Assembly (NCBI GenBank): GCA_030704425.1
Contig: JAPDHM010000003.1
Location: 1 to 64,000 of the forward strand
Source: Rhodobacteraceae bacterium IMCC1909
Lineage (GTDB): Bacteria > Pseudomonadota > Alphaproteobacteria > Rhodobacterales > Rhodobacteraceae
Direction of reading: 5' to 3'
Length of the DNA: 64,000 bases
The notes beneath the pieces were generated by a model. It was given only the letters and a program-made list of their open reading frames with translations. It did not search any database and was not told where the DNA came from. Within the stretch, counting starts at the first letter, position 1, and each line of letters starts with the position of its first letter. Both the position numbers and the translations under genes were made by a program. Shown in pieces: positions 6,605 through 24,719 of the stretch.

Positions 6605-6605
6605 T

Positions 6606-6663: not shown

Positions 6664-6742
6664 GCAAATGTTCGTTGATGAACACGCACTCACTCACTCA
6701 TCAGCCTTGTCTATCAAACTGGCAGCTTTCTGTGGAGTTGCT

Positions 6743-7284: not shown

Positions 7285-7300
7285 GATAAACTCCTATTTG

Positions 7301-7314
7301 CTACTTTATAGTAG
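7301..7314 (-). promoter_or_regulatory. Dyad upstream of parD, probable autoregulatory operator
   Basis: CTACTTTATAGTAG is a perfect inverted repeat (CTACT-N4-AGTAG) 16 bases upstream of the parD start. Ribbon-helix-helix antitoxins normally bind such short dyads over their own promoter. Confidence 0.55.
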
Positions 7315-7360
7315 TATCTGTTCTCTTGTTTATCAAGTGTTCATCGATGCACAGGCACAC

Positions 7361-9567: not shown

Positions 9568-9808
9568 ACACCCGCACGCGCGTCGATGCCAACAGCGTCT
9601 TATCTGGCGATGTAAAATTGAGTCATTGTGACCATCTAACCAATTTTACTCTGAGTGCAACAGCCGTGAATGCATAGGGCGATATAATAAGGGTATACCT
9701 GATAATAATCGCGAATGGTGGGGGGGTACAGGAGGCAAAGGGTGTATATTTGGGTGGATATAAATTATTGATAATTCATTTAAACAAATAATATCAAATA
9801 CTTGTTTT
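9567..9808. other. Intergenic stretch between the IS and the left att repeat
   Basis: No convincing gene is seen. The right part (9720-9808) is very AT-rich. By the logic of tRNA-gene integration, sequence just left of 9809 was the original neighbour of the 3' end of tRNA-Phe before the element inserted. Confidence 0.6.
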
Positions 9809-9884
9809 ATTTAAGTGGTGCCCGGGGGCGGATTTGAACCACCGACACGAGGATTTTCAGTCCACTGCTCTACCCCTGAGCTAC
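9809..9884 (-). repeat. Left attachment-site repeat: 3' part of tRNA-Phe without the 5' acceptor strand
   Basis: This 76-bp sequence is identical to 24638-24713. It contains 69 bases of a tRNA-Phe (GAA anticodon), from the D-arm region to the CCA end, plus seven bases downstream. The seven-base 5' acceptor strand is replaced by unrelated AT-rich DNA, so this copy cannot fold as a tRNA. It is the displaced tRNA 3' end produced when an element integrates into a tRNA gene. Confidence 0.95.
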
Positions 9885-9955: not shown

Positions 9956-10924
9956 GTGGCATCAATTAGGAAAAGAAACGGTCTTTGGCAAGCGCAAGTC
10001 CGAAGCCGCAAACTAGGCTCAACGTCAAAATCATTTCATCGGAAAGCAGACGCAATAGCCTGGGCCAAGATCCAAGAAGCAGCAATGCAGACTGGAGAAT
10101 GGAGACCTAAAGACAAAAGATATTCTACCATTGACGACCTAATACAAAAATACCTCACAAAGGTGACGCCGCACAAGAAAGGCGCAGAGACTGAAACACG
10201 GCGCTTCAAACGTCTACTGAAAGAAAAGTCATTAATGGAGATCAAGTTAGATGAAGCAAAGCCTCATCACTTCGCATCCTTCAGGGATAAGCGTATTAAA
10301 GATGGAAATCGAGCTGCTCAGTACGATCTAGTTTTGCTTCGAGCAGCTTGGAACACGGCTCGCATCGAGTGGGGCTGGGACCTTGGAGATAATCCTTTAA
10401 CATTGATCCGCTTTCCTAAAAGCAATCCACCGAGAGAGCGCAGGCTCAAACAGGGCGAATATGGAATGTTACGCGCAGCATCAGCTGAAACAAAAGTTTG
10501 GTATCTTTGGCCAATGATCGAAATCGCAATTGAAACGTCTATGCGACGAGGAGAGATTTTGAGCTTAGAATGGAAGCACATTGACTTTGAGCGAAGTAAA
10601 GCCTTGCTGCCCAAGACAAAGAACGGTCGATCCCGTTGGGTGGGACTCTCACGTCAAGTGATAGCGCTTTTAGAAAAACTACCTAAAGAACAGGAACGCG
10701 TATTTCCTGTCACCGATGTCGCAGTCAGGCAGGCGTGGGATAGGTTGCGCCGACGCGCAGGGATTACAGATCTGACGTTTCATGATCTGAGACATGAAGC
10801 GATTAGTCGCCAATTCGAAAGTGGCCTCAGCATCCCTCAAGTAATGGCAATAAGTGGGCATCAGACAGCGAGTCAGTTGTTTCGGTACGTGAATTTGAGT
10901 GAAAACGATCCTGTCAATATGTAG
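9956..10924 (+). CDS. int: Tyrosine recombinase (integrase) of the tRNA-Phe element
   Basis: The 322-residue protein starts at a GTG preceded by GGAGGAAC. It has an N-terminal arm-binding region, a SAM-like core-binding region (about residues 58-150) and a complete catalytic domain: Arg197 in TSMRRGE, the strand Lys in KTKNGRSR, His276 and Arg279 in HDLRH, His302 in ISGHQ and Tyr311. It begins 71 bases from the left att repeat and points into the element, as expected for the enzyme that recognises the 76-bp tRNA-Phe core. All active-site residues are present, so integration and excision activity is plausible. Confidence 0.93.
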   Translation: MASIRKRNGLWQAQVRSRKLGSTSKSFHRKADAIAWAKIQEAAMQTGEWRPKDKRYSTIDDLIQKYLTKVTPHKKGAETETRRFKRLLKEKSLMEIKLDEAKPHHFASFRDKRIKDGNRAAQYDLVLLRAAWNTARIEWGWDLGDNPLTLIRFPKSNPPRERRLKQGEYGMLRAASAETKVWYLWPMIEIAIETSMRRGEILSLEWKHIDFERSKALLPKTKNGRSRWVGLSRQVIALLEKLPKEQERVFPVTDVAVRQAWDRLRRRAGITDLTFHDLRHEAISRQFESGLSIPQVMAISGHQTASQLFRYVNLSENDPVNM

Positions 10925-11202: not shown

Positions 11203-11442
11203 ATGACAAGCCCTTTAATTGAAGAAAAAGAAATCCAGCTCGCCAGAGCTATGTCGAACCAGACTATCGCACGCATTAAGATTGCAGCAGCTATTCTCGG
11301 CATTACGCCGAAGCACTTGCATGAATTGGCGAAGAGCGCAGACTTTCCTGCCAAAGTTAGGATCGGATCCAATGCAGTTGGACGGCGGGTCTCGGATCTC
11401 GAAGCCTGGATAGACGCACAAATTGTGAAAGGAGAACACTAA
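11203..11442 (+). CDS. AlpA-like helix-turn-helix regulator / excisionase
   Basis: This 79-residue protein resembles AlpA/excisionase-type regulators: a helix-turn-helix (AAAILGITPKHLHELAKS) followed by a wing-like FPAKVRIGSNAVGRRVSDLEAWI, the usual ending of the family. The start has a strong AAGGAGG site. Its stop overlaps the primase start by one base (TAATG), forming an operon with the replication genes. Such proteins activate integrase expression or promote excision in P4-like satellites, which is a plausible role here. Confidence 0.85.
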   Translation: MTSPLIEEKEIQLARAMSNQTIARIKIAAAILGITPKHLHELAKSADFPAKVRIGSNAVGRRVSDLEAWIDAQIVKGEH

Positions 11443-12686
11443 TGTCTGCTCCTTTTATCTCGTCCACCGATCACACTGCGTATGTCACAATAGTCACATC
11501 GTCTAAAGGGCCGGTTAACAAAAAAATCTACCTTAAAGATGGTAAAGTCTGCAAGGATGCAAACGCTCAAATATATCAGGGCTTCGCTAAGACTGTTCCG
11601 GCAGCAACGTCTGAAGACCTAAGCTCGATAATCGCTAATCTAAAACAAAATGAAGCGATTGCACTCGGCCAGCTTAAACAACTTGGACAAAGTTTCCCGC
11701 TTACAACAAGAGCTGAACTCGATGCTGGCAGTATCGCGCGCACTAAAGAATTCTTTTATCATTCTAATTTTGTTGGATGGCTATTACTTGACGTCGATAC
11801 TAAAGACTTACCGGTTGACATTATAGATAAATTGGCAGGGCGGTCTGCATTCGATGTCTTGCTCAGCGTGATCCCGGAGCTATTACCAACCGAAGCTCTG
11901 GTTCGCGCTTCTTCTTCGGCTGGGATCTTGAAACCTGATGGCTCAGCGCAAGAAGCGACGGGCCTCCATATTTTTATCAAGATTGCCGACCAAAGGCAAA
12001 GTAAGAGTGTGTTGCAGCTCATTCATGACCGGTGTTGGGAAGCTGGCTATGGGTTCTTCGCGTTGTCAACGGACGGAAAGCTATTGGAACGCTCCCTAGT
12101 TGATACCGCAGTTCATGGCCCAGAACGTTTGGTATTTGAGGCAACGCCAACCGTATTACCTCCACTCACCAAGCGACATATTCCAGATGAAGTCTTACGT
12201 GGCGGCGTATTGGATAGCCTGCGGGACCCAAATCATGAACAGGTTTTCTACCTGAAAAATGAGGCGCGCAAACTCATCAAGCCGGTGTCACAAAAAGCGA
12301 AGCGTCAATACGTCAACGACAAAACCGTAAAAGTTATGGCTAAAACAGGACTATCTAGGACCGAAGCATCCAAAATTGTAAAACAGCGTCTTGAAGGTCG
12401 TGAGTTTTCTGAACACGACATCTTGGAGCTGGGTCACAATAATTTCGTGAAAGTCTCTGATTTTTTGGATAATGTATCTGGGTCAGTTGGAATGCCGTGC
12501 CCCATCGAAGGAAGTGATTATGGCTCGTCGACTGCTTATTATTATCCGTCAAACAACTACCAACCATATCCAAAGATTATTTCGTTCGCGCATGGCAACG
12601 TGACGGAGTTTACCTTTGCGCGTTACAGACACCTTAAAGGGTTAGTTTGGCTTCCTAATCTAAATGAGAAGGGAGACCAAAGATGA
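11442..12686 (+). CDS. Probable archaeo-eukaryotic-type primase (replication protein)
   Basis: The 414-residue product has the three motifs of AEP-type primases as far as can be judged by eye: hydrophobic strand plus two Asp in LLLDVDTKD (residues 114-122), an Ser/His motif in GLHIFIKI (His176) after VRASSSAG, and a later Asp in SLVDTAVHGPERLVFEA (Asp221). The C-terminal part contains a helical segment with AKTGLSRTEASKIVKQRLEG. It overlaps the AlpA-like gene and the helicase gene, so the three are co-translated. It probably primes replication of the excised element. Sequence similarity to known primases outside the motifs is not evident. Confidence 0.7.
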   Translation: MSAPFISSTDHTAYVTIVTSSKGPVNKKIYLKDGKVCKDANAQIYQGFAKTVPAATSEDLSSIIANLKQNEAIALGQLKQLGQSFPLTTRAELDAGSIARTKEFFYHSNFVGWLLLDVDTKDLPVDIIDKLAGRSAFDVLLSVIPELLPTEALVRASSSAGILKPDGSAQEATGLHIFIKIADQRQSKSVLQLIHDRCWEAGYGFFALSTDGKLLERSLVDTAVHGPERLVFEATPTVLPPLTKRHIPDEVLRGGVLDSLRDPNHEQVFYLKNEARKLIKPVSQKAKRQYVNDKTVKVMAKTGLSRTEASKIVKQRLEGREFSEHDILELGHNNFVKVSDFLDNVSGSVGMPCPIEGSDYGSSTAYYYPSNNYQPYPKIISFAHGNVTEFTFARYRHLKGLVWLPNLNEKGDQR

Positions 12687-14983
12687 TTGCCGCAAACAAA
12701 CAAATTCACTGGGACGCAGACACTGTAGGCAAAAATTTAGCTCGACAACTAAGAGATGACTTTAACATCAGAATATTACCATCGCTGTCACCCAAAGGAA
12801 GTTTCTATGGCACCGAGAGTTACCTATATCAAGCTACGGTTGGTGTCGGTAAAACTTACCAAATGGTAAAGTTGATAGGGACGATACTAGACTACAAGCT
12901 ACGCACTCTGGTCAGAGCGCCAACGACAAAACTAGCAGAAGAAATCGCGCATCAAATAAACGTTAAGTTCCCTGGACAAGCGGGGGTTTGGTATGGGCGA
13001 GAACAAGATGATCCCCAAAAACCAGCTCAAAAAATGTGCCCACGTTATGACGCAATAAACGAAGTCTTAGCCCTGGGTGGTCAACCAGAATTAGTCTGCG
13101 GGACACGAAACTCAATTTATTGCAGATATCACCCTAAAGCTGAGGGCGAGGCATCATGTGGTTACAAAGCACAATCTCTTAAAGATAAAAATATTGTGGT
13201 GGTAGCTGGTGATGCAATGCTCAGCCTCGTCCCCAGAGCTGGGATGAAGCGTAAAGACATATCGCATGGAGGGTCAGATACACCCGGCACAGAAACTAAT
13301 TATCAGACTGAAAAGTCAGATTTTGATATTGTAATCTTGGATGAAACTAATCCGTTCTCAATGTTAGAGGGGTTTGTTGAACCAAAACTTTTTACTCCCC
13401 ACAAAACTGGTGATAACCTAGAAATAGAGGATAAGTATGATCGTGAAATCTTAGTACAATTCTCTCAGTTCTTATCCGATCTGATTTTGACGGAAGATAC
13501 AGAGTATCTTTCGCAATTCGAGTTTCATGAAACGGTGGTGAAAAATAAGCAGGATAAAATCGAATTTTTAGAACACATCCGGGAAACTGCGGTACGATAC
13601 TTACGCCCCCAATTGGAAAGCATAGAGTACCACAAATTATCTGGCGCAGAAATTCATGAAGAAAATCGTAAAAAATTGCGAACGCGGCAACTTTTGCAAA
13701 AGTACATCGATATATGTGAGGCTCAGAAAACTTCTGTTGAAAAATCATGGGGTGAAATTGCTGCCTTGAAAATTGTTGAGCATGATGGCGTGAAACAATT
13801 AAATATCAGAAAACGAAAACATATCTCGCACGCTTATTCAGAATTGCCCTGCATAATTCTTGATGCAACTCCGCAACCGGAATTACTAAAATACGTTTAC
13901 AACAACCTACAGTTCCGCTTCTCGGAAAAGGCTGACGACGGAAAAGCCGTGAAGCGTTTCCAACTTTCCGACAGTACATTTAGCTACAAATCGGTAAGAG
14001 AGCCACGCTGGGCCGCAAGGCTTACCCTTCTAGCAGAATTGTTAAGTTCGGCACATGGGGCGACAGGGTTGATTTGTCCAAAAATAGCGCGAGAATTTAT
14101 TGATGAGAATTTTGTAACTGAAACGTTAACCAATCATTTTGGAGCACTAAGGGGAGATAATTCATTTTCTGATATCCCATGCGTTCTCATCGCTTCCCGT
14201 CAAGCCCAACCGCCTAAATACGTTGAAGATATGGTACATGTCTTAACGGGTGAAAAACTCTTAAGTGCAGACAAAAAAGATAGACATTATGAATGGTACC
14301 AAAAAAAGGATGCCTTTATTATTCATCGGTCTGGGACCATGGGATGGCCAGTGCGAAATGACTATCATCCAGACCCACTTGTCGAAGCAGCGCGGTCCGC
14401 AATAACAGATGACAATTTGGAACAAGCATTGGGCCGAACACGAAGTGTACGGCGAGATACCAATCCACTCTTCGAATATATCCTAACAAACGTTGCAACA
14501 AATCGTTTCGTAGACGGAGTATTCACTTTAGCCGAACTAAAGGCAGCAACTGGCTGGGTTGGCATATTGTTACACGCTGGAATCTGGATTGGCTCAGGCA
14601 AGGGCGCGGCTATTCTGTTCCACATTTTCCATGGGCTTCTCGCTCAAAGGCGGGATTCCTTATATAGATACATTATAGGAGATCCCGCCTTTGAGACGCC
14701 TGAACAGGCGGCCAAATGGCGGAAAGATCAACTCAAAGACAATCAATCGATTGCAGAGCTAGTAACTGAAATTGATGAAGCACTTCAAAACCAAGCAGAC
14801 GGTGTGAATTTATTGCATTCACCCTTTCCCGTTGCAGACTTCAGAGAAGTCAAAGCCAAGATCCGAGGATCACGGTACTTCGCTCAAGTGTACGTCCGTA
14901 TTAAAAACAACGAGATTCCTGAAGAGGCTCTGCAGCGGATACTTGGTGATGAAATGAGGCACATCGAAGCCAAACCCAAATAG
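12683..14983 (+). CDS. Helicase-like P-loop ATPase of the element
   Basis: The 766-residue protein has a Walker A motif (TVGVGKT, residues 52-58), a Walker B/DExx motif (VILDETN, Asp220-Glu221) and a late EQALGRTRSVRR (residues 580-591) that looks like helicase motif VI with arginine finger. The middle CIILDATPQPELL resembles motif III of superfamily 2. Cys residues between 130 and 165 (CGTRNSIYC, CGY) could bind a metal. Its ATG lies four bases inside the primase frame. The pair likely unwinds and primes DNA, giving the element its own replication module. No capsid, relaxase or conjugation gene follows. Confidence 0.75.
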   Translation: MIAANKQIHWDADTVGKNLARQLRDDFNIRILPSLSPKGSFYGTESYLYQATVGVGKTYQMVKLIGTILDYKLRTLVRAPTTKLAEEIAHQINVKFPGQAGVWYGREQDDPQKPAQKMCPRYDAINEVLALGGQPELVCGTRNSIYCRYHPKAEGEASCGYKAQSLKDKNIVVVAGDAMLSLVPRAGMKRKDISHGGSDTPGTETNYQTEKSDFDIVILDETNPFSMLEGFVEPKLFTPHKTGDNLEIEDKYDREILVQFSQFLSDLILTEDTEYLSQFEFHETVVKNKQDKIEFLEHIRETAVRYLRPQLESIEYHKLSGAEIHEENRKKLRTRQLLQKYIDICEAQKTSVEKSWGEIAALKIVEHDGVKQLNIRKRKHISHAYSELPCIILDATPQPELLKYVYNNLQFRFSEKADDGKAVKRFQLSDSTFSYKSVREPRWAARLTLLAELLSSAHGATGLICPKIAREFIDENFVTETLTNHFGALRGDNSFSDIPCVLIASRQAQPPKYVEDMVHVLTGEKLLSADKKDRHYEWYQKKDAFIIHRSGTMGWPVRNDYHPDPLVEAARSAITDDNLEQALGRTRSVRRDTNPLFEYILTNVATNRFVDGVFTLAELKAATGWVGILLHAGIWIGSGKGAAILFHIFHGLLAQRRDSLYRYIIGDPAFETPEQAAKWRKDQLKDNQSIAELVTEIDEALQNQADGVNLLHSPFPVADFREVKAKIRGSRYFAQVYVRIKNNEIPEEALQRILGDEMRHIEAKPK

Positions 14984-15479: not shown

Positions 15480-15883
15480 CTATCATCGGTTTATGGGGTT
15501 TTATTATACCCCATATTGGATGGCTTTGCTAGGCATGCGCGACTTGGTCGACGGACCGAGGCCCGAGCAAAACTAATCAACGCCAATTGAGCTCAGGTAA
15601 CACCGGTAATAGGTCGACGGTGCGTGGTCCACTGCTCACGGCCCTTGGCTCCCGGTCCACAGGCCTAAGCAATATGGTTAGGGAACCCCGGGCCAGGTTT
15701 CATGTACCTGAATGGAGAGCGTTTTGTCATACGGCGAGGTTATAAAACCGCCCGCCCCGTCTCAAGCTCGTTTTGTCTGGCAAAGCCATTAAAATAGGTC
15801 AGTAATAATTCGACAAGTTCGACAAATAAGAAACTAAGCATTTATATTTTGCAGAGTAATCTCTTTACGTTATCATCTCAGTC
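15480..15883. other. Non-coding gap with a dyad and GC-rich repeats
   Basis: ATGGGG at 15493-15498 pairs with CCCCAT at 15509-15514 just upstream of the HGGxSTG gene and may be its operator. A GC-rich stretch at 15600-15690 holds the motif GCGTGGTCC. The right part contains the end of an IS6-family element, listed separately. No gene is supported on the plus strand. Confidence 0.55.
15702..15787 (-). mobile_element. IS6-family remnant A (5' end of the transposase)
   Basis: The minus strand starts with CCAGACAAAACGAGCTTGAG and reaches an ATG opening the codons MTKRSPFR, matching the end of remnant B at 16870-16950. Only the terminal sequence and the first transposase codons survive. It lies upstream of the glutathione transferase gene. 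Confidence 0.7.
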
Positions 15884-16516
15884 ATGAAATTAATTATAGC
15901 CACTCCAAGTCCATTCGCTCGTAAAGTAAGGGTCATACTTCGTGAAAAAGCGATTCATTGTGAAGAAATTATAGATGTTCCTTGGAATAAGGACACTATA
16001 ACCAAAGGCCTTAATCCACTTGGGAAAATTCCAATACTTATTAAGGATGGTATTGAGCCGATATTCGACAGCAAAAATATTATTAAATACCTTGAACAAA
16101 TAAATCCGGAGCCGAGTTTTTATCCTGAAAGTAGGAGCAAGAAACTTAAAGCAAGCCTTTTAGAAACTGCCGCAGACGGAATTTGTGACGCAGTTGTGCT
16201 CATTTTTTTAGAAAAATCACGAAGTCAAAATTTGCGAAGTAAAGCTTGGATCGACCGGCAAAAAGAAAAGATCTACACCGGCACTCAGTATTTATCGGAT
16301 AATTTGTTAACAAATAAATATTTTGTAGATGACCACTTTACAATCGCTGATGTTGCGGCGTTTTGCTGCCTAGAGTATCTTGACTTAAGGTTACCTGAAT
16401 TTGATTGGAGAAATGAACATTCAAATTTAGAAAATTTTTGGCAAGAACATCAGAGCCGACATTCATTTTTGCAAACTAAGCCTACAACGCAGGTAATTGA
16501 ACCAATGTCGGAGTAA
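15884..16516 (+). CDS. Glutathione S-transferase family protein
   Basis: The 210-residue protein has an N-terminal thioredoxin-like domain with ATPSPFARKVRVILRE, where the Ser of SPFARKV is the likely glutathione-activating residue, and NPLGKIPILI with the cis-Pro. DSKNIIKYLE follows as the gamma-Glu binding segment. The C-terminal helical domain contains FTIADVAAFCCLEYLDLR, the conserved N-cap Asp motif. The gene is more AT-rich than the core genes and is flanked by IS6-family remnants A and B, a sign of transfer. Substrate is unknown. Confidence 0.9.
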   Translation: MKLIIATPSPFARKVRVILREKAIHCEEIIDVPWNKDTITKGLNPLGKIPILIKDGIEPIFDSKNIIKYLEQINPEPSFYPESRSKKLKASLLETAADGICDAVVLIFLEKSRSQNLRSKAWIDRQKEKIYTGTQYLSDNLLTNKYFVDDHFTIADVAAFCCLEYLDLRLPEFDWRNEHSNLENFWQEHQSRHSFLQTKPTTQVIEPMSE

Positions 16517-16534
16517 AGGAGCTATCCGGGTGCT

Positions 16535-16950
16535 ATCAGACGAATGAGAACTCACATCAGATTGCTGGTGCAGCCTGAACCTATGCGCTCAATAATTGGC
16601 GCCACTCAGTAAGAGCGGCGGTTCGATTGAGCTTGAAATTGTCTCCTGAGTAGAAGTGGCGCTCCTGATTGAAATGGTTGTGGACTGAAGAGTGGACGGC
16701 AACGAACTTCTGCTATCATCGGACCAAATCTATTCCACCAAAACCGAACTGTTTCGTGGCTGATCTCAATTCCTCGTTCGTGCAAAAGATCTTCCACATT
16801 ACGGAATGAGAGCGGAAACCACACATAAAGCATCACAGCCAAGCGGATGATCTGAGGGCTCGTTTTAGAGGACCTGAATGGGGGGTGTTTTTTCATATGG
16901 CGGACGCTAAGAACCCACCCTGCCCCGTCTCAAGCTCGTTTTGTCTGACA
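16535..16950 (-). mobile_element. IS6-family remnant B, internally deleted but with both ends
   Basis: The minus strand encodes the N-terminus of an IS6/IS26-type transposase (SFRNVEDLLHERGIEISHET and VRFWWNRFGPMIAE). The coding sequence then jumps, out of frame, to the C-terminal end, recognisable in another frame as segments like HNHFNQE and NFKLNRTAALTEWRQLLS. The catalytic middle is deleted. Both termini remain: TGTCAGACAAAACGAG at the right (complement) and TCAGACGAATGAG at the left. The right end abuts the 5' region of phoR. Confidence 0.85.
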
Positions 16951-17037
16951 ACACCTGCGCTGGCGTTAGATTTGGAAATGGTGTTAGACCTTACTCCTGA
17001 GAACGAGCGCATTATATCCACCGATTGTGAGCTATCG

Positions 17038-18051
17038 ATGACAAATCTGCTTAACGCTTTTCCGCTTGCCAGCTTCATCGTTGGACAAGATGGCTATTTG
17101 GTCGGTGCCAATGAGCAGGCGCTGGATTTGTTTGGCAAGGAGATTATTGGGCATACTTCTATGGAAGTCGTTCGCAACCCGAATGTACATGATGCAATTG
17201 AACGTGCCTTGGTACAAAAAACTCGAACGCAATGTGATTGGAGCACGACGCAGGCCACGACCGATGCGGTGTATCACGTTACGGCGAGTTGGATTGAGGC
17301 TGAAGATATTTTAGTCACCTTCAAAGATGTCACAGATATTGAACAGTCGCTCAGGGCGCGCCGCGAATTTGTAACGAATGTCAGTCATGAGCTCAAAACG
17401 CCTCTAACAGCGATGCTTGGGATTTTGGAGACTTTGCAACTCATGGGTCCATCAGACCCAGAAGCACAGCAGAGCTTTCTCGGCATGATGCAAAAAGAGA
17501 CACAAAGGATGAACCGCCTGGTAAGCGATTTATTATCACTCAATTCTGTACAAGCGAATGAGCGGATTCGCCCCTCCACTCCGTTAGATTTACGCGCTTT
17601 GCTTGAGGAGACGGTTACGAGCCTGCAAGGCCTATCCCATAAATCTCATTCACAATTGTTGTTCACACCGCCAAAAACAGCACCCATCGTTGTTGGAGAT
17701 GGAGATCAACTCCGGCAGGTCGTCATTAACCTGATTGAGAATGCCATAAAATACGCAGGACCAGGGAATATTCTTATTGGCTTGAGCGGTATAGATTATC
17801 AGCCGTTATTGCGCTGCGAGGGTGTCAAAATCGCTGTCGAGGATCATGGCTGCGGAATCGCCGCCATTCATATTCCGAGGTTGACTGAGCGATTTTATCG
17901 GGTGGATGACCACCGTGGACGGGACGTTGGTGGCACTGGATTGGGCTTGTCCATCGTCAAACATATTGTCAGCCGGCACCGGGGTCGGATGCGAATCAAA
18001 AGTAGTTTGGGACGCGGGAGCCAATTTGCCATTTACCTTCCAGCAAATTGA
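17038..18051 (+). CDS. phoR: Phosphate regulon sensor histidine kinase PhoR
   Basis: The 337-residue protein (from ATG 17038, giving the family-like start MTNLLNAFPLASFIV) has a PAS-like sensor (VGQDGYLVGANEQALDLFG), a dimerisation domain with His117 in VSHELKTPLTAML, and an ATPase domain with N box LIENAIKYAG, G1 box DHGCGIA and G2 box GTGLGLSIVKHI. No long N-terminal membrane segment is seen, as is usual for this clade. An upstream in-frame start exists at 16978, and the frame opens at 16885 inside the IS6 remnant. The gene heads the phoR-pstSCAB-phoU-phoB cluster and senses Pst/PhoU status to phosphorylate PhoB. The IS end sits where its promoter should be. Confidence 0.93.
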   Translation: MTNLLNAFPLASFIVGQDGYLVGANEQALDLFGKEIIGHTSMEVVRNPNVHDAIERALVQKTRTQCDWSTTQATTDAVYHVTASWIEAEDILVTFKDVTDIEQSLRARREFVTNVSHELKTPLTAMLGILETLQLMGPSDPEAQQSFLGMMQKETQRMNRLVSDLLSLNSVQANERIRPSTPLDLRALLEETVTSLQGLSHKSHSQLLFTPPKTAPIVVGDGDQLRQVVINLIENAIKYAGPGNILIGLSGIDYQPLLRCEGVKIAVEDHGCGIAAIHIPRLTERFYRVDDHRGRDVGGTGLGLSIVKHIVSRHRGRMRIKSSLGRGSQFAIYLPAN

Positions 18052-18067
18052 TTTGGGTTTTTTTAAA

Positions 18068-18096
18068 ATGTCATAAAACTGTTACAAGCCTGTCGC
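18068..18096 (+). promoter_or_regulatory. Pho box upstream of pstS
   Basis: TGTCAT at 18069, TGTTAC at 18080 and TGTCGC at 18091 are direct repeats spaced exactly 11 bp, separated by AT-rich AAAAC and AAGCC. The first two form ATGTCATAAAACTGTTAC, almost the enterobacterial PhoB consensus. The pst operon is thus very likely induced by phosphate starvation through its own PhoB. Confidence 0.9.
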
Positions 18097-18166
18097 ATAA
18101 GCTTTGCAAAAGACCGTTAGGCCTGGGTCAGACGAAAGTCAGACTCAGTTGCTTTAGGAGATTGCA

Positions 18167-19195
18167 ATGTACAAGCTCACAACAACCCTAGTTACCGCGG
18201 CTTTGTCCGCATCGGCAGGCATGTCTCTCGCCCGCGACCAAATCCAAATTGCAGGATCATCGACCGTCCTACCTTATGCTTCAATTGTTGCAGAGGCCTT
18301 TGGAGAAAACTTTGACTATCCAACGCCGGTGGTTGAATCCGGGGGATCCTCGGGCGGCATGAAACGATTTTGCACTGGATTGGGTGAAAATACGATAGAT
18401 ATCGCGAATTCTTCGCGCCGCATAAAAGACAGCGAAAGAGCGGCATGCGCAGAGCAAGGCGTAACAGAAATTATCGAAATTCGAATTGGTTACGATGGAA
18501 TTGTGTTTGCCTCTGATATTGAGGGACAAAAATTTGCGTTCCATCCGGTGGACATCTATCGAGCTTTAGCGGCGCAATTGCCAATGGAAGGTGAAATGCG
18601 AGCCAACAATTATACCGATTGGTCTGAGATCGACGCAAAATTCACTGCGCAGCCCATAAAGGCCTATATCCCCGGTACGAAGCATGGCACGCGCGAAGTG
18701 TTTGAAGAAAAAGTTCTTCTCGCAGGTTGTGAATCCTCTGGAGCTTTGGCTGAAATACTGTCGCTCAATGGTGGTGACAGCAAAGCTGCTGAGGCTGCTT
18801 GTATGACGGTGCGCACCGATGGGATTTCTGTGGATATTGACGGAGATTACACGGAAACACTGGCGTCCATTGCGTCTAATAAAAATGGAATTGGCGTTTT
18901 TGGTCTCTCATTTTATGAAAACAACACTGACAAGCTGCAAGTTGCGACAATATCGGATGTCATACCCTCGACTGAAAGCATTGCTTCAGGCGATTACCCT
19001 GTTTCACGTCCGCTCTACTTTTATGTGAAAAAAGCACATATCAGCGTAATCCCTGGACTCAAAGACTATGCTGCGTTTTTCACTGCGGAGGAGATCGCCG
19101 GCCCAGATGGTCCACTGGCTGAATATGGCTTGGTTGCCGATCCACTTCTAGAGCAAACTCAAGAGCAGATTGAAAACGAAACAACCATGCAGTGA
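18167..19195 (+). CDS. pstS: Phosphate ABC transporter substrate-binding protein PstS
   Basis: The 342-residue precursor has a Sec signal peptide ending near GMSLARD and the PstS phosphate-binding loops, including IAGSSTVLPYASIVAEAFG and ESGGSSGGMKRFC. The later segments TDWSEIDAKF and PGTKHGTREVFEE are typical of the family. It captures phosphate in the periplasm for PstCAB. It begins 71 bases after the Pho box and has the ribosome binding site TAGGAGA. A hairpin follows the gene, which may raise PstS yield relative to the permease. The C-terminal LEQTQEQIENET tail resembles the longer roseobacter PstS form. Confidence 0.96.
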   Translation: MYKLTTTLVTAALSASAGMSLARDQIQIAGSSTVLPYASIVAEAFGENFDYPTPVVESGGSSGGMKRFCTGLGENTIDIANSSRRIKDSERAACAEQGVTEIIEIRIGYDGIVFASDIEGQKFAFHPVDIYRALAAQLPMEGEMRANNYTDWSEIDAKFTAQPIKAYIPGTKHGTREVFEEKVLLAGCESSGALAEILSLNGGDSKAAEAACMTVRTDGISVDIDGDYTETLASIASNKNGIGVFGLSFYENNTDKLQVATISDVIPSTESIASGDYPVSRPLYFYVKKAHISVIPGLKDYAAFFTAEEIAGPDGPLAEYGLVADPLLEQTQEQIENETTMQ

Positions 19196-19222
19196 AGCCA
19201 CGCGCGTGGTGCAATTCCCTGA

Positions 19223-19250
19223 GCCTTGCCTAGAGACATTTGGGCAAGGC
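19223..19250 (+). promoter_or_regulatory. Hairpin between pstS and pstC
   Basis: GCCTTGCC at 19223-19230 pairs perfectly with GGCAAGGC at 19243-19250, followed by CAAAACTTT. A stem at this place would stabilise the pstS transcript or partly terminate it, giving more PstS than membrane subunits. Confidence 0.65.
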
Positions 19251-19267
19251 CAAAACTTTAGGACAAC

Positions 19268-20512
19268 ATGCTGACTCACATTCTAATTCTGATGGTTCTT
19301 GCCTTGGCACTGTTGGGGTTTTGGCTAGGCAAACGAAAGGTCATTTTGGCTGCAACATCTTTGCATTCATTGCCTGTGCATTATGCTTCCTATGTCCTGC
19401 TGATGACGATATTGCCGGCTTCACTCACCCTGGCCGTCTGGAGCCTGGCTGCGCCCTGGCTGCTCCATGATCAATCTTTGACAATTTCAAACACCAATAA
19501 CACTCTGGCTCAAACCGACACAGCGCTCAAGTCTACCGTGGTGATCATTGTCGCCGTTTTGTCTCTATTTTTTTCGATGCGGAAGGTATCGCCCGAGTTC
19601 CGGGCTCGCAATGTTGTTGAGAAATTTATTCTAGCCGCTCTGATGATTTGTGCTGCCCTTGCTATCCTGACCACGGTTGGGATTGTAGTATCAATGGTGT
19701 TTGAGACAGCTCATTTTCTCAATCTACACAGCTGGAAAGATTTCTTTTTTGGTCTGGACTGGTCACCTAACTTTCACGGTGACAGCGCCCTATCAATTTT
19801 GCCGTTACTCTGGGGAACTCTGTATATCTCTTGTGTGGCGCTTTTGGTTGCGGTGCCTGTCGGTTTGTTATCTGCTATTTACTTATCGGAATATGCCTCG
19901 AGTCGCATCCGTTCCATTGCAAAGCCTTTACTCGAAGTTTTGGCAGGGATACCCACGATCGTATATGGCCTTTTCGCTTTGCTCACCTTTGGGCCATTCT
20001 TGAGGGATCTGTTCGGGCCGGAGGGCTTCTTTGCCGTTGGTTGGATGAGCGATACACGCTCGGTGGCGACGGCGGGTATCGTCATGGGAATTATGCTCAT
20101 TCCCTTTGTCTCATCTCTGTCAGATGACATTATTAATGCAGTTCCACAATCACTCAGGGACGGCTCTTTTGGGCTCGGCGCAACGCAATCTGAAACCATC
20201 AAACATGTGCTACTGCCTGCAGCACTGCCGGGGATCGTTGGCGCAATCCTTTTAGCGGCATCGCGTGCCATTGGCGAAACAATGATTGTCGTTCTAGGCG
20301 CTGGCGCGATTGCGCGTTTCACAGGCAACCCGCTAGAAGCCTTAACCACCGTGACAACACGTATTGTTAGTCAATTGACCGGAGATGGAGATTTTAACAG
20401 CCCCGAAACATTGGTGGCTTTCGCCCTTGGCCTCACCCTATTTGCACTGACCTTGGGGCTAAATATCTTTGCACTCTACTACGTCAGAAAATATCGCGAG
20501 CAATACGAATGA
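19268..20512 (+). CDS. pstC: Phosphate ABC transporter permease PstC
   Basis: This 414-residue membrane protein starts with two N-terminal hydrophobic segments absent from short PstC proteins, followed by the binding-protein-dependent permease domain. The EAA-type loop contacting PstB is visible in LRDGSFGLGATQSETIKHVL, and AIGETMIVVLGAG follows it. It pairs with PstA in the inner membrane. The last codons overlap pstA by four bases (ATGA). The extra N-terminal region (about 120 residues) is usual in alphaproteobacterial PstC. Confidence 0.95.
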   Translation: MLTHILILMVLALALLGFWLGKRKVILAATSLHSLPVHYASYVLLMTILPASLTLAVWSLAAPWLLHDQSLTISNTNNTLAQTDTALKSTVVIIVAVLSLFFSMRKVSPEFRARNVVEKFILAALMICAALAILTTVGIVVSMVFETAHFLNLHSWKDFFFGLDWSPNFHGDSALSILPLLWGTLYISCVALLVAVPVGLLSAIYLSEYASSRIRSIAKPLLEVLAGIPTIVYGLFALLTFGPFLRDLFGPEGFFAVGWMSDTRSVATAGIVMGIMLIPFVSSLSDDIINAVPQSLRDGSFGLGATQSETIKHVLLPAALPGIVGAILLAASRAIGETMIVVLGAGAIARFTGNPLEALTTVTTRIVSQLTGDGDFNSPETLVAFALGLTLFALTLGLNIFALYYVRKYREQYE

Positions 20513-21837
20513 TTGAGCCAAATCCACATAAATCACTTTTTGTCGCAAGCGCGCAAACCAAACGACGTGCGACTGCAGAGAAGCGTTTTCACATGCTCGG
20601 ACTGACCGCTATTTTTATTGCCCTATCCATGCTTGCCATTCTTATGACGACGATTGTCACAAAAGGCTCTGGCGCTTTTCAACAGAGTTTTATCACACTG
20701 GACGTTGCTCTGTTGGAAGCAAAGCTCGACAAAAAAGGGACGCGAAATCCGGACAACCTAAAGAAAGTTACGACCTTTGGGTATGCGCCCTTGATCAAAG
20801 CGGCCATGGAACAGATTGTTGTAGCCCGTGGCATTGAAACAGACCTCACATCAAAGGACATGGCCGCGATTGTTTCTAAAAGCGCCGCTGCGCAGATGCG
20901 CGATCGCGTCTTGAACGATCCACGCTTGATTGGAACCACAACTGAATTCAAGTTTCTGGCAAATTCCTGGATTGATGGCTATCTGAAAGGGCGCGTGACG
21001 CGGGAAACGATTGGAAAAAATAAGAATATATCAAGTGCGCAGTTGGACTTTGCCGACCGACTCATTGAGCTTGGTATCATTGAAAAATCGTTTAATATTC
21101 AATTTATTTTGGGTGCAGATGCCTCTGATCAGCGACCAGAGGATGCGGGCATTGGCGTGGCGATAATCGGCTCTTTTGCCATGATGTGCGTTGTTTTGCT
21201 GCTGGCTTTGCCGATTGGCGTGGCCGCCTCCATTTATTTGGAAGAATTTGCCCCCGAAAACCGCCTCACTGATTTTATCGAAGTCAATGTAGCAAATCTG
21301 GCGGCTGTTCCTTCGATCGTTTTCGGGATTTTGGGTTTAGCGTTTTTTATCAATATGATGCATTTGCCACAATCTGCACCCCTGGTTGGGGGGCTGGTGC
21401 TCACCCTTATGACTTTGCCCACAATAATTATCTCGACTCGAGCAGCTTTGAAAGCGGTTCCGCCAAGTATCCGCAGTGCAGCACTCGGGGTCGGTGCATC
21501 GAAAATGCAAACCACTATTCATCATGTCTTGCCATTGGCGACGCCAGGGATCTTGACTGGAACAATCCTTGGCCTGGCGCAGGCTTTGGGCGAAACTGCG
21601 CCGCTCTTGTTGATTGGCATGATTGGGTATGTGGCGACGAATATGCCCGAAACAGTGTCTCAAGGTCTTTTCTCGCCAAACTCTGCCATGCCAGCGCAAA
21701 TCTATGAATGGGCCAAACGTGCGGACCCAGCATTTTATGAGCGGGCATGGGGCGGGATAATTATATTGCTGATCTTTTTGGTAACAATGAACCTAATTGC
21801 AGTAAGACTGCGGCGGCGCTTCGAACGGAGATGGTAG
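20509..21837 (+). CDS. pstA: Phosphate ABC transporter permease PstA
   Basis: The 442-residue protein has a long N-terminal region typical of alphaproteobacterial PstA (a first membrane helix, then a soluble insert of roughly 150 residues before the permease domain). The permease domain carries the coupling loop in [20 protein letters not shown] and [12 protein letters not shown]. It forms the channel with PstC. Overlap with pstC and the five-base gap to pstB show tight co-translation. Confidence 0.95.
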
Positions 21838-21841
21838 ACCT

Positions 21842-22645
21842 ATGAACGAAAATATTATCAGTCATGAGGAATTGGCTATGACCTCTCAAACAATAAAAAT
21901 AAGTGCACGCAATGTGGATGTTCATTATGATAAGACACATGCGATCAGAGGCGTCTGTGCAGAAATTCCATCCAACAGCGTGACTGCGTTTATTGGTCCC
22001 TCTGGCTGCGGGAAATCGACGTTTCTCAGGTGCTTGAATCGGATGAATGATACGATTAAAAACTGTCAGGTAAGCGGTGATATTATGCTCGATGGGGAGG
22101 ATATTTACGATCCTAAAGTAGACCCAGTTCAGCTGCGTGCCAAAGTCGGCATGGTGTTTCAAAAGCCAAACCCTTTTCCAAAATCCATCTATGACAATGT
22201 AGCCTATGGCCCCCGCATCCATGGGCTTGCTCGCGATAAGTCCGACCTTGATGGAATTGTGGAGCAAGCATTGCGCCGCGCAGCCATTTGGGGAGAAGTC
22301 AAAGACCGATTGAGCGCGCCGGGCACTGGCCTGTCTGGCGGGCAACAGCAACGGGTTTGTATTGCCCGCGCTATTGCCACAGCACCAGAGGTTTTGCTGA
22401 TGGATGAACCCTGCTCTGCGCTGGATCCGATTGCCACGGCACAAATCGAAGAGTTGATCGATGAATTGCGGCAAAATTATGCCGTTGTCATTGTCACACA
22501 CTCCATGCACCAAGCTGCCAGGATTAGCCAAAAGACAGCTTTCTTTCACATGGGCACTTTGGTGGAATTTGGAGATACGAAGACAGTTTTTACCAACCCG
22601 AGCGATCCGCAGACAGAGAGTTACATTACCGGACGCATAGGCTAG
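21842..22645 (+). CDS. pstB: Phosphate ABC transporter ATP-binding protein PstB
   Basis: The 267-residue ATPase contains Walker [10 protein letters not shown] (residues 52-60), the PstB-typical [12 protein letters not shown], the Q-loop region [12 protein letters not shown], signature LSGGQQQR and Walker [14 protein letters not shown]. The switch His is in [10 protein letters not shown]. It powers phosphate uptake by PstCA. The first 12 residues may not be translated, since a second ATG (MTSQTIKIS) gives a more usual length. Confidence 0.97.
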
Positions 22646-22654
22646 GAGAGAAAA

Positions 22655-23374
22655 ATGAGCTCAGATCAACATATCCGCACAGCATTCGATCGTGACCTTG
22701 ACCAATTGCTAGCTCAAATGCTGCGCATGGGGGGCTTGGTAGAAGTCGCCATTCTAAAAGCTGCAAAATCATTTGAGACTCAAGATGTACAACTGGCTGA
22801 CGAAGTGCGCGCGGCTGATCGCATTATTGATGACATTGAAGCACAGATAAACGAGGATGTTGCCAGCATTATTGCCCTGCAAGCGCCCGCGGCGCGGGAT
22901 CTGCGGCTGCTTTTGTCGATCTTAAAAGTTGCCGGAAACTTGGAGCGTATCGGCGATTATGCGAAAAATATGGCAAAGCGCACGCACCTATTGCTGCAGT
23001 TGCCGAATATCGAAAACTCATCCAGCTCCCTTCGGCGCTTGTCGCGTGAAGTTCAGTTGATGCTCAAAGACAGTCTTGATGCCTATGTTCAGCGTGATAC
23101 TGAATTGGCCAAAGATGTGATCTCCCGCGATAATGACGTCGATGAACTTTACAATGGCCTGTTTAGGCAGTTTGTGACACATATGATGGAAGATCCGCGT
23201 AATATTACGGCCTGCCTGCATCTGCATTTTATTGCGAAAAATATCGAACGCATGGGGGATCATGTAACCTCTATTGCAGAGCAGGTGGTTCTTGTCGTCA
23301 CCGGTCAAATGCCCAGCGAGAGCCGCCCCAAGGGTGATCTCACCTCAATCGACGTAACATTATCTCAGGAATAG
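22655..23374 (+). CDS. phoU: Phosphate signalling regulator PhoU
   Basis: The 239-residue all-helical protein has two PhoU repeats. Metal-binding motifs are visible in each: EVRAADRIIDDIE in the first and ISRDNDVDELYNGLF in the second. HFIAKNIERMGDHVTSIAE in the second repeat is diagnostic. PhoU links Pst transporter state to PhoR and keeps the kinase inactive when phosphate is plentiful. The gene starts nine bases after pstB with an AGGAGAG site. Confidence 0.96.
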   Translation: MSSDQHIRTAFDRDLDQLLAQMLRMGGLVEVAILKAAKSFETQDVQLADEVRAADRIIDDIEAQINEDVASIIALQAPAARDLRLLLSILKVAGNLERIGDYAKNMAKRTHLLLQLPNIENSSSSLRRLSREVQLMLKDSLDAYVQRDTELAKDVISRDNDVDELYNGLFRQFVTHMMEDPRNITACLHLHFIAKNIERMGDHVTSIAEQVVLVVTGQMPSESRPKGDLTSIDVTLSQE

Positions 23375-23377
23375 GAC

Positions 23378-24064
23378 ATGCAAGCGCGTCCCAAAATACT
23401 GATTGTCGAAGACGAACCAGCACAGCGCGAAATTTTGCTTTACCACTTGAAAAAGGCTGGGTTTGAAGCGCTATGGGCCGAAAACGGTGAAGAGGGTCTC
23501 CTCTTGGCGCAAGAAAGTCTGCCTGATATGCTGATCTTGGACTGGATGTTGCCAAAGTTGTCAGGATTGGAAGTCTGTCGTCGACTGCGCGCACATCAAG
23601 ACACGAAACACATTCCAATTATCTTGCTATCGGCACGATCTGAAGAGGCCGATAAAGTGCAAGGCTTGGATATTGGCGCCGATGATTATGTTGCCAAACC
23701 CTACTCTGTTATAGAATTAATGGCGCGTGTAAAAACCCAATTGCGCCGAAACAGAGCAAGCCTACTAGGCGCGCAATTACGCTTTCAAGATATTGTCTTA
23801 GATGCAGCCGCCCACAAAGTTTTTCGGGCGGGCATGGAAATAAAACTGGGGCCGAAAGAATTCAAATTACTTGCAACCTTTATAGAAAAGCACGGCCGGG
23901 TGCTGTCTCGCAACCAACTTTTAGACCAGGTCTGGGGCCAAAATATCTATGTCGACAGCCGCACAGTCGATGTGCATGTGGGCCGTTTGCGAAAGTCGCT
24001 TATGCAACATGGCGGCGATAACCCGCTGCGCACCGTCCGCGGCACCGGCTATGCACTTGGATGA
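23378..24064 (+). CDS. phoB: Phosphate regulon response regulator PhoB
   Basis: The 228-residue protein has a receiver domain with acidic residues in VEDE, the phospho-accepting Asp55 in LILDWMLP, and the Lys in YVAKPYS, followed by an OmpR/PhoB-type winged helix (GPKEFKLLATFIEKHGRVLS and VDVHVGRLRKSL). It binds Pho boxes such as the one before pstS. It starts three bases after phoU. Together with phoR at the other end, the cluster forms a self-contained phosphate-starvation circuit. Confidence 0.97.
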   Translation: MQARPKILIVEDEPAQREILLYHLKKAGFEALWAENGEEGLLLAQESLPDMLILDWMLPKLSGLEVCRRLRAHQDTKHIPIILLSARSEEADKVQGLDIGADDYVAKPYSVIELMARVKTQLRRNRASLLGAQLRFQDIVLDAAAHKVFRAGMEIKLGPKEFKLLATFIEKHGRVLSRNQLLDQVWGQNIYVDSRTVDVHVGRLRKSLMQHGGDNPLRTVRGTGYALG

Positions 24065-24249
24065 CAATAAATATGTCCGTCGTCAGGGATGGCGTCAAAT
24101 CCATTCATTTGGGAAAAGCGGAAGATGCGCTCAATTCAACGGAAGAAAATGTCGACTTATGGCAAAACGGTTATTTGGTAGAAGAAGCTGCAAAGCATGC
24201 GCCGGTGCAGTGGCGCTCTATTGAAGACGAAATGGAGTCAGACGAATGA
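24061..24249 (+). pseudogene. Small unidentified gene after phoB, cut by IS6 remnant C
   Basis: A frame of 62 codons starts with ATG overlapping the phoB stop (ATGA), with a second ATG at 24073. The product is acidic (KAEDALNSTEENVDLWQNGY) and I do not recognise it. Its last codons (ESDE and stop) come from the end of IS6 remnant C, so the original gene was probably longer and lost its 3' part when the element inserted. Coupling to phoB suggests it belonged to the pho operon. Confidence 0.5.
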
Positions 24250-24366
24250 GAACTCGCATCGAATTACTGGCGCAGTCTGAATCTATGCGCTCAATAATTG
24301 GCACCACTCAGTAAGAGCAGCGGCACGGTTCAGCTTGAAATTGTCTCGTGAGTAGAAGTGGCGTTA
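24238..24366 (-). mobile_element. IS6-family remnant C (3' end of the transposase)
   Basis: This segment is a diverged direct repeat of the left end of remnant B at 16536-16663, sharing TATGCGCTCAATAATTGGC, CACTCAGTAAGAGC and AGCTTGAAATTGTCTC. Both begin TCAGACGAATGAGAACTC. Only the last part of the transposase remains. B and C lie in the same orientation on either side of phoR-phoB. Confidence 0.85.
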
Positions 24367-24637
24367 CCAAACAAAACCACCCCTGAATGAATTTACACTC
24401 CCAACACTAAAGGGCCGTGGTCCGAGACGCGGGGCCCTGGGATTGGGGGCCCCGGTCCGTGGTCCTGAGGCTTACCTGCAGAGATTAGGCACAGTAACCC
24501 CCCTACGCTTCCCGTGATCGTCCACACAGTCTCGGTCACACAGCAGTCACACCCACTTTGACTTTTATCGTGAAAGTTGGATAATAACTCTCCACAACAG
24601 ATAAGGTGTGACAGTTAAATCTGGTATATTTTCTTGG
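24367..24637. other. Non-coding right end of the tRNA-Phe element
   Basis: No gene is seen. GGGGCCC at 24431-24437 can pair with GGGCCCC at about 24447-24453. The 9-mer CCGTGGTCC occurs at 24415 and 24457 and also at 15038 and 15166. CAGTAACCCCC occurs at 24492 and at 15099. The shared motifs link this end to the stretch after the helicase gene. Confidence 0.55.
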
Positions 24638-24713
24638 ATTTAAGTGGTGCCCGGGGGCGGATTTGAACCACCGACACGAGGATTTTCAGTCCACTGCTCT
24701 ACCCCTGAGCTAC
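24638..24713 (-). repeat. Right attachment-site repeat inside intact tRNA-Phe
   Basis: This 76-bp sequence is identical to 9809-9884 and covers tRNA-Phe from its last base of the 5' acceptor strand through CCA plus seven bases. Because this copy restores a complete tRNA, the element lies to its left and integration left the tRNA functional. Confidence 0.95.
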
Positions 24714-24719
24714 CCGGGC
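24645..24719 (-). tRNA. tRNA-Phe (GAA)
   Basis: On the minus strand GCCCGGG at the 5' end pairs with CCCGGGC before the discriminator A and encoded CCA. The anticodon loop CTGAAAA gives anticodon GAA. The T-arm has GGTTCAAATCC. It is 75 bases including CCA. It lies after yacG on the same strand and serves as the integration site of the element to its left. Confidence 0.96.

What the first reader, a model, noticed from the sequence alone, without database searches (positions are those of the whole stretch)
15702..24366. The whole phosphate starvation system phoR-pstSCAB-phoU-phoB appears to be island cargo
The operon lies between the tRNA-Phe att repeats and is directly bracketed by IS6-family remnants B and C in the same orientation, a pseudo-composite arrangement. 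IS6 elements mobilise such segments. Tyrosine-recombinase elements at tRNA genes that carry nutrient genes are known in marine cyanobacteria (tycheposons), but a complete self-regulated Pho/Pst cassette in a roseobacter satellite-like element would be new to me. It could give phosphate-poor waters a transferable adaptation, or make a key regulon unstable.
Basis: partly seen in the sequence, partly recalled or inferred. Interest (0 to 1): 0.85.

Follow-up and report, generated by a model that had tools for sequence, protein, structure and literature searches.

The report
Wandering phosphate operon inside tRNA island
A marine bacterium keeps its only detected high-affinity phosphate system between pieces of a transposable element, inside an insertion at a tRNA gene; several relatives carry other versions elsewhere or none was found, so a core nutrient system here looks like movable cargo.

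Summary
An 83-nt tRNA-Phe repeat (96%) brackets int, an AlpA-like gene, primase, helicase, a GST gene and phoR-pstSCAB-phoU-phoB. Two direct IS6-family pieces (B 16529-16955, C 24237-24365) sit tightly against the Pho operon. It is the only pstA and phoU found in the genome. Of 20 genus genomes, 8 keep pho at an ancestral slot behind gmk and a gamma carbonic anhydrase; here that slot is empty (301 bp to tsf). Pho lies elsewhere in 6, and pstA was not found in 6. The Pho tree rejects a single origin in the genus (p-AU 1e-94). All three loci of this Pho type have IS6 ends on both sides and lie 3' of different tRNAs (0.6, 0.6 and 3.8 kb). Two sister genomes are reciprocal: at tRNA-Phe one has IS-pho-IS, the other one IS piece; at a second locus the roles are reversed. 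Best reading: IS6 moved the Pho module into the end of a resident tRNA-Phe element, so the integrase could carry it only as a passenger. Against: two of six relocated Pho loci show no IS6. Phosphate islands and patchy pst in this group are published; the IS6-bordered, position-changing single copy is the new part.

The parts
9802..9884 (.). left att: tRNA-Phe 3' part plus 14 nt downstream
   Evidence: 83-nt repeat, 96% to 24631-24713; 9577-9884 is 76% identical to the tRNA-Phe 3' flank of relative G001, where I read no integrase
9956..10924 (+). tyrosine recombinase (integrase)
   Evidence: PF00589 6.7e-24; PHROG_1 1.4e-51
11203..11442 (+). AlpA/excisionase-like regulator, 79 aa
   Evidence: PHROG_66 7.3e-07
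11442..12686 (+). DNA primase
   Evidence: PHROG_16593 9.4e-30; 24 phage records with weak matches, best 33.5%, none over 80% of the query
12683..14983 (+). helicase-like replication protein
   Evidence: DEAD/ResIII below cut-off; in 394 family genomes the only other homologue is in this same genome, 43% (few genus members in that sample)
15690..15779 (+). IS6-family piece A (right end, IS 720-809)
15884..16516 (+). glutathione S-transferase-like gene; homologue (68% DNA) at the same place in G011
16529..16955 (+). IS6-family piece B (both ends, middle of transposase deleted)
   Evidence: right end abuts, within 2 bases, the Pho homology with G001
17038..18051 (+). phoR (337 aa from ATG 17038)
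   Evidence: TIGR02966 3.2e-83, below cut-off; start by comparison with G001/G008
18068..18096 (+). Pho-box-like triple half site before pstS
   Evidence: half sites at 11-nt spacing; two-half-site match also at pstS in G001, G008, G011, none by the same scan in G017 (consensus recalled)
18167..19195 (+). pstS
   Evidence: PF12849 2e-56; TIGR02136 below cut-off
19268..20512 (+). pstC
   Evidence: TIGR02138 3e-82, over cut-off
20509..21837 (+). pstA
   Evidence: TIGR00974 8.6e-67, over cut-off; single copy
21842..22645 (+). pstB
   Evidence: TIGR00972 4.3e-118, over cut-off
22655..23374 (+). phoU
   Evidence: TIGR02135 8.9e-66, over cut-off; single copy
23378..24064 (+). phoB
   Evidence: TIGR02154 3.2e-93, over cut-off
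24237..24365 (+). IS6-family piece C (left end, IS 7-135)
   Evidence: the same fragment borders the element's right end in G011, G002 and G000 element 2
24366..24630 (.). element right end with GTCACAC-type repeats (possible integrase arm sites, inferred)
   Evidence: alignable at tRNA-Phe in G011 and G002, short pieces in G017 and G004
24631..24713 (.). right att, inside tRNA-Phe
24645..24719 (-). tRNA-Phe (gaa), intact

Best explanation
A two-layer arrangement. Layer 1 is an integrative element (int, AlpA-like, primase, helicase; no capsid, terminase or conjugation gene recognised) sitting in tRNA-Phe between 83-nt att repeats. Its right end carries a fixed IS6 fragment (C). Layer 2 is a 7.1-kb Pho module (own PhoR/PhoB, PhoU, PstSCAB and Pho-box-like sites) bordered by IS6 ends. 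It was inserted at the resident IS6 fragment, most likely as an IS6 circle (translocatable unit) or cointegrate joining an existing IS copy, or by homologous recombination between IS copies. In this genus the ancestral Pho slot is empty in many genomes and Pho modules of different ancestry sit in several other places, mostly at IS6 pieces, so this genome's only Pho system is passenger DNA. Shown: anatomy, single copy, empty slot, IS-bounded presence/absence, tree conflict. Inferred: IS6 transposition as the mover, and that the integrase could still excise the island with pho.
For: Only pstA and phoU found in the genome. Slot empty: carbonic anhydrase and tsf 301 bp apart. IS6 ends within 175 bp of phoR start and phoB stop in 3 of 3 type-I loci (G000, G001, G008), 3' of tRNA-Phe, tRNA-Arg, tRNA-Leu at 0.6, 0.6 and 3.8 kb; the G001 and G008 ends are old copies, 64-76% identical. 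In G001 homology with G000 stops where the IS end begins and homology with G011 resumes at the second IS end; the G001 module truncates an integrase gene (PF00589 7.7e-12) that is longer in G000. Reciprocal loci: tRNA-Phe (G000 GST-B-pho-C, G011 GST-single IS) and EamA/urease (G011 IS-pho II-peptidase-IS, G000 single IS, flanks 95-98%). C plus right end recurs in G011, G002 and G000 element 2 without pho beside it. Genus Pho genes fall in 4 groups; one clade rejected, p-AU 1e-94. More IS6 transposase matches in relocated genomes (5: 50, 32, 6, 5, 2) than in slot carriers (8: 5, 2, 1, 1, 1, 0, 0, 0), one-sided p 0.005; with G012 (2) p 0.004, relatedness ignored.
Against: Two of the six relocated Pho loci show no IS6 in the stretch held: G012, and G003, whose contig starts 56 bases before phoR. 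No 8-bp target repeat at B; C lacks its right end. B and C are defective, so movement now would need a transposase in trans. G011's left IS end is weak (37 bp, 68%, E 2.4 to the consensus; supported by alignment to G000). Slot carriers are IS6-poor, which weakens the control, and pstA-less genomes range from 0 to 18 matches. The left flank of tRNA-Phe lies on another contig (C2:576760-583133) beside a third tRNA-Phe fragment, so the site is rearranged. No excision or transfer data. (Confidence lowered from 0.68 on recheck because of G003 and G012.)
Confidence: 0.65

Rival explanations
1. Deletion scar, not insertion: the common ancestor of G000 and G011 already had IS-pho-IS at tRNA-Phe; G011 lost pho by recombination between the two direct IS copies and later used a different Pho operon elsewhere.
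For: A single IS fragment is also what IS x IS deletion leaves; G011 carries GST and one IS fragment there.
Against: GST (68%) and the right end (80%) differ far more between G000 and G011 than the chromosomal flank (97.9%), so these are not simply one island before and after a deletion. G002 and element 2 have C plus right end with other neighbours.
Confidence: 0.25
2. Vertical Pho operon that only changed place: type I was already in the ancestor of G000 and G001 and was relocated inside the genome; no recent transfer from another species. (Compatible with IS6 as the mover.)
For: Pho dS G000-G001 0.197-0.336 per gene lies at the 9th-52nd percentile of 109 orthologues, median 0.33; DNA identity 91.7% matches the flank.
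Against: G011, sister of G000 in the core tree, lacks type I; G008, in another clade of the genus, has it; pho dS to G008 is 1.38 while core dS is saturated. Other genus members carry other Pho lineages.
Confidence: 0.4
3. Integrase-borne cargo: the Pho operon travels with the tRNA-Phe element as a unit and the IS6 pieces are incidental.
For: Everything lies between att repeats with a full-length integrase; tRNA genes also flank the type-I loci of G001 and G008.
Against: In G001 and G008 I read no full integrase beside pho and the tRNAs differ; junctions coincide with IS ends; sibling right ends lack pho.
Confidence: 0.1
4. Assembly artefact at IS repeats.
For: Many IS6 pieces in this genome (54 DNA matches to B); contig C3 starts in a repeat and the left flank is on C2.
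Against: Both outer junctions recur in G011 (GST-IS; IS-right end) and pho next to an IS right end recurs in G001 and G008; the region is inside a contig.
Confidence: 0.05

Closest known systems
Phosphate-related flexible genomic islands of HIMB59 (PMC10734472; abstract and passages seen)
   Same: Marine alphaproteobacterium; variable islands carrying pstSCAB-phoU with or without phoRB; versions do not follow species phylogeny
   Different: There one conserved genome position, and the word integrase does not occur in its text. Here the position changes between species, with IS6 borders and a tRNA element
IS6/IS26 pseudo-compound transposons and translocatable units (review PMC7986276; passages seen)
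   Same: Cargo between direct IS6 copies; proposed circular units; target repeats not always present
   Different: The passages concern resistance genes; here defective IS copies flank a nutrient regulon and the mechanism is inferred from sequence only
Tycheposons (original work recalled; described in PMC10872708, passages seen)
   Same: tRNA site, tyrosine recombinase, nutrient cargo in plankton
   Different: The Pho cargo borders are IS6 ends; backbone kinship to tycheposons not compared
Arsenic islands with pst operons (PMC3834237; passages seen)
   Same: pst operons in islands, partly transferred; in G008 an ArsJ and ArsJ-associated GAPDH pair lies beside pho
   Different: Almost all those strains keep a second pst; here the island copy is the only one found
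Patchy high-affinity phosphate transporter and phoBR in the Roseobacter RCA cluster (PMC10675870; passages seen)
   Same: Same organism group as far as I can tell (recalled); presence varies by species
   Different: Position, IS6 borders and tRNA islands do not appear in the passages seen ('genomic island' 0 occurrences)

Membership tests
Integrative element at tRNA-Phe | direct att repeats, one in an intact tRNA | tested here: met
Integrative element at tRNA-Phe | full-length tyrosine recombinase inside, beside one att | tested here: met
Integrative element at tRNA-Phe | relative with an empty site | tested here: met
   G001 tRNA-Phe; left flank matches window 9577-9801 at 76%
Integrative element at tRNA-Phe | excision or circle | not testable with these tools
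   needs DNA or reads
IS6 pseudo-compound transposon / translocatable unit | cargo between direct IS6 copies | tested here: met
   B and C; family by transposase of other copies
IS6 pseudo-compound transposon / translocatable unit | intact flanking IS with transposase | tested here: not met
   B lacks the middle, C is a 129-bp fragment; full-length transposase ORFs exist elsewhere in the genome
IS6 pseudo-compound transposon / translocatable unit | 8-bp target repeats | tested here: inconclusive
   none seen by eye at B or at the four other copies printed; C's outer end is missing
IS6 pseudo-compound transposon / translocatable unit | presence/absence exactly between IS ends | tested here: met
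   two reciprocal loci G000/G011 and the G001 locus
Phage satellite (P4/PICI/PICMI-like) | int, AlpA, primase module | tested here: met
   (module recalled as typical)
Phage satellite (P4/PICI/PICMI-like) | packaging or capsid-hijacking genes or helper phage | tested here: inconclusive
   none among the ORFs scanned; no helicase relative in viral contigs; helper not testable
Tycheposon | tRNA plus tyrosine recombinase plus cargo | tested here: met
Tycheposon | kinship of recombinase/backbone to described tycheposons | not tested
   no reference set used

The most novel reading that the evidence does not exclude
In this genus the complete, self-regulated Pho/Pst system is a circulating IS6-borne cassette: each genome keeps at most one, of whichever lineage, docked at a resident IS6 copy (often near a tRNA). 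By riding in an excisable tRNA-Phe element the Pho regulon becomes a trait that subpopulations can lose and regain with phosphate supply.
Probability: 0.2. Interest if true: 0.82.

Novelty: new variant of a known kind. Interest (0 to 1): 0.58.

Why it matters
High-affinity phosphate uptake and its regulation are usually treated as core functions. Here the only copy found sits in movable DNA and its ancestral slot is empty; several relatives hold unrelated versions elsewhere, and in others none was found. That gives an ocean bacterial group a concrete route for gaining and losing phosphate adaptation, and a test of whether IS6 elements, known for spreading resistance genes, also shuffle nutrient regulons.

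Tried and rejected
Second pst copy: the second PBP_like_2 hit (C1:1047458) is best matched by the tungstate-binding TupA model (3.7e-56, below cut-off). Composition as proof of foreign origin: pho GC3 is 0.50-0.55 in all 7 genomes tested whatever the core GC3 (0.375-0.586), so it gives no direction. Target-site repeats: none seen. Viral contigs: no relative of the helicase (9 pattern matches, 0 confirmed) or of PstA (3, 0 confirmed). Plasmids: helicase 9 records, at most 47% coverage, 24-27% identity. tRNA 3'-end repeats: G001 tRNA-Arg none within L063, whose contig ends 8.6 kb on; G008 tRNA-Leu one inverted partial match, 79% over 53 nt. The rearrangement behind the displaced left flank was not mapped. 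Low-affinity transporters were not searched; PMC10675870 (passages) reports PIT in most species of the group. The helicase search drew few genus members, so siblings in the genus may have been missed. No structure prediction was run. Rows dropped: G012 was left out of the 49-row tree for its very long branch, and 34 of the 80 named loci were used there; all 96 rows are in the FastTree. The core tree rests on six slot-neighbour proteins, not the genome; G015 had only tsf and rpsB. G012 is not in the 5-genome IS6 comparison; with it p is 0.004.
Full report
WHAT IS THERE. The window is contig C3:1-64000 of a 3.27-Mb, 9-contig genome, G000. An 83-nt repeat of the 3' part of tRNA-Phe lies at 9802-9884 and 24631-24713 (96%; 76 nt identical); the intact tRNA-Phe is 24645-24719 minus. 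Between them lie a tyrosine recombinase, an AlpA-like gene, a primase, a helicase-like ORF, a GST and phoR-pstSCAB-phoU-phoB. G+C is 0.43-0.49 inside against 0.54-0.58 at 24-31 kb, but the DNA left of the element (0.39-0.47) and a stretch at about 32-39 kb are low too. A Pho-box-like site stands before pstS, also in G001, G008 and G011; the scan found none in the slot locus of G017 (consensus recalled).

IS6. A copy elsewhere in the genome is 817 bp with GGTGCTGTCAGAC-type ends; the 235-aa transposase of another copy matches the NCBIfam IS6 model over cut-off and Pfam DDE_Tnp_IS240. B (16529-16955) has both ends but lacks the middle; C (24237-24365) is IS 7-135; A (15690-15779) is a right end. 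B and C point the same way. B's right end meets, within 2 bases, the first base of DNA shared with the Pho locus of relative G001.

ONLY COPY. PhoU has one match in the genome; PstA has one full match, its other six being the operon's pstC and permeases at 35% identity or less. Of 61 genomes searched, 43 have a PstA match at E<=1e-60 and each of these has exactly one; more distant second copies would be missed.

ANCESTRAL SLOT. In 8 of 20 genus genomes (G006, G007, G010, G013, G014, G017, G018, G019) pho follows gmk and a gamma carbonic anhydrase. tsf directly follows pho in 5 of them (G006, G007, G014, G017, G018); contigs end first in G010 and G013, and in G019 about 6 kb of other ORFs intervene. 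Of 80 named loci in other genera 63 show at least one slot gene and 17 none, some on short contigs; the four named loci nearest to type I are among the 17. In G000 carbonic anhydrase and tsf are 301 bp apart; the gap is 169-718 bp in G001, G002, G003, G004, G005, G009, and 1.6-4.8 kb of other DNA in G008, G011, G012. Pho lies elsewhere in 6 of 20 (G000, G001, G003, G008, G011, G012). PstA was not found in 6 of 20 (G002, G004, G005, G009, G015, G016); these are 78-92% complete, so absence is not proven.

TREES. Six slot-neighbour proteins give ((G000,G011),(G001,((G002,G003),G005))) with G008 in another clade (several inner supports 65-85). For PstSCAB-PhoU-PhoB (49 rows) G000+G001+G008 form one group (100/100) next to an uncultured Rhodobacteraceae locus (100/95); G011+G003, the slot group G006/7/14/17/18, and G010/13/19 fall elsewhere. 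One clade for the genus is rejected (lnL 478 lower, p-AU 1e-94). This does not date transfers: between G000 and G001 pho dS is at the 9th-52nd percentile of 109 orthologues, and between G011 and G003 pho dS 0.66 equals core 0.69.

POSITIONS AND IS ENDS. Type I pho lies 3' of tRNA-Phe in G000 (0.6 kb), tRNA-Arg in G001 (0.6 kb) and tRNA-Leu in G008 (3.8 kb, other genes between). IS6 ends lie within 175 bp of phoR and phoB on both sides in all three; in G001 and G008 they are 64-76% identical to the consensus copies. In G001 the left IS end follows the N-terminal part of an integrase gene whose 619-aa version (PF00589 7.7e-12) stands at the same tRNA in G000, and homology with G011 resumes at the other IS end. 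In G008 an ArsJ and ArsJ-associated GAPDH pair (both over cut-off) with an ArsR/ArsC-like gene lies between IS6 pieces beside pho.

RECIPROCAL LOCI. At tRNA-Phe G000 has GST-B-pho-C-right end, G011 has GST-one IS fragment-right end. Between an EamA-like gene and urease-like genes G011 has a weak IS end (37 bp, 68%), its own pho, an M20 peptidase and an IS copy, while G000 has one IS copy with both ends; flanks 95-98% identical. The same fragment plus right end stands in G002 and in a second element of G000 (C2 about 539.8-559.5 kb) with a related primase split over two ORFs, a 43% helicase and other cargo. So C belongs to the element's end and pho was added beside it or, less likely, lost from G011 by recombination between the copies.

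CONTROLS AND RESULTS AGAINST. At E<=1e-3, IS6 pieces near pho were found in G000, G001, G008 and G011, and not in the stretches of 12 other genomes (G003, G006, G007, G010, G012, G013, G014, G017, G018, G019, G022, G024) nor in 80 named loci. Two of those 12, G003 and G012, also have pho outside the slot; G003's stretch starts 56 bases before phoR. Slot genomes are IS6-poor and genomes without a PstA match range from 0 to 18 matches, so this is association, not proof. Chance of a 7.1-kb stretch with pieces within 250 bp on both sides in G000 is 1.6e-4 (approximate).

A SECOND SIGN OF MOBILITY. In G006 and G017 pstS, pstC and pstA have dS 0.06-0.09; of the other 27 orthologues compared across 54 kb, 25 have dS above 1.2 or saturated, the exceptions being carbonic anhydrase (0.4) and phoU (1.05). 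These genes were recently exchanged between species in place.

PRIOR WORK. PMC10734472 (abstract, passages) reports phosphate islands in HIMB59; PMC10675870 (passages) reports patchy high-affinity phosphate genes and phoBR in the RCA cluster with low-affinity PIT in most species; PMC7986276 (passages) covers IS6; PMC3834237 and PMC10872708 (passages) cover arsenic islands and tycheposons; PMC7779409 (passages) did not bear on pst. Searches for Planktomarina with phosphate and genomic island, and for IS6 family with pstS and phosphate, found 0 papers each in the held library. That G011 is Planktomarina temperata RCA23, and so the genus Planktomarina, is my recollection from its size (3,288,122 bp), not a tool result.

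VERDICT. Real, well supported as anatomy and comparison, mechanism inferred; a new variant of a known kind.

Noticed in passing
L071 / L072 (G006, G017): pstS, pstC, pstA dS 0.06-0.09 amid neighbours mostly above 1.2 or saturated: recent exchange of phosphate transporter genes between species in the ancestral slot.
   Followed up: partly
G000:C2 about 539.8-559.5 kb (L142, L143): Second element of the same kind (primase split over two ORFs, helicase 43%, same right end with IS6 fragment) carrying catabolic-type genes such as a mandelate racemase/muconate lactonizing enzyme family member instead of pho.
   Followed up: partly
G000:C2:576637-576685 (L070): Third tRNA-Phe fragment beside the displaced left flank of tRNA-Phe: a rearrangement at this site.
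   Followed up: partly
L064 4756-7866 (G008): ArsJ, ArsJ-associated GAPDH and an ArsR/ArsC-like gene between IS6 pieces next to pho.
   Followed up: partly
window 16529-16955; G000:C2:172113, C1:677772, C1:714898: Four copies share B's internal deletion, as if a non-autonomous IS6 derivative has multiplied.
   Followed up: no
window 1-693: Three 231-nt tandem repeats in a long repetitive ORF at the contig start.
   Followed up: no
window 6000-8611: Second integrase (7361-8611) beside a ParE-toxin-family gene (6743-7045) and a helix-turn-helix gene (6000-6356), left of the element.
   Followed up: partly
window 36672-36768 and 37961-38057: 97-nt direct repeat, 90% identical, starts 1289 nt apart.
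   Followed up: no
L153 826-2685 (G000, tRNA-Arg): 619-aa integrase gene; in G001 homology to it ends at the IS6-pho module.
   Followed up: partly
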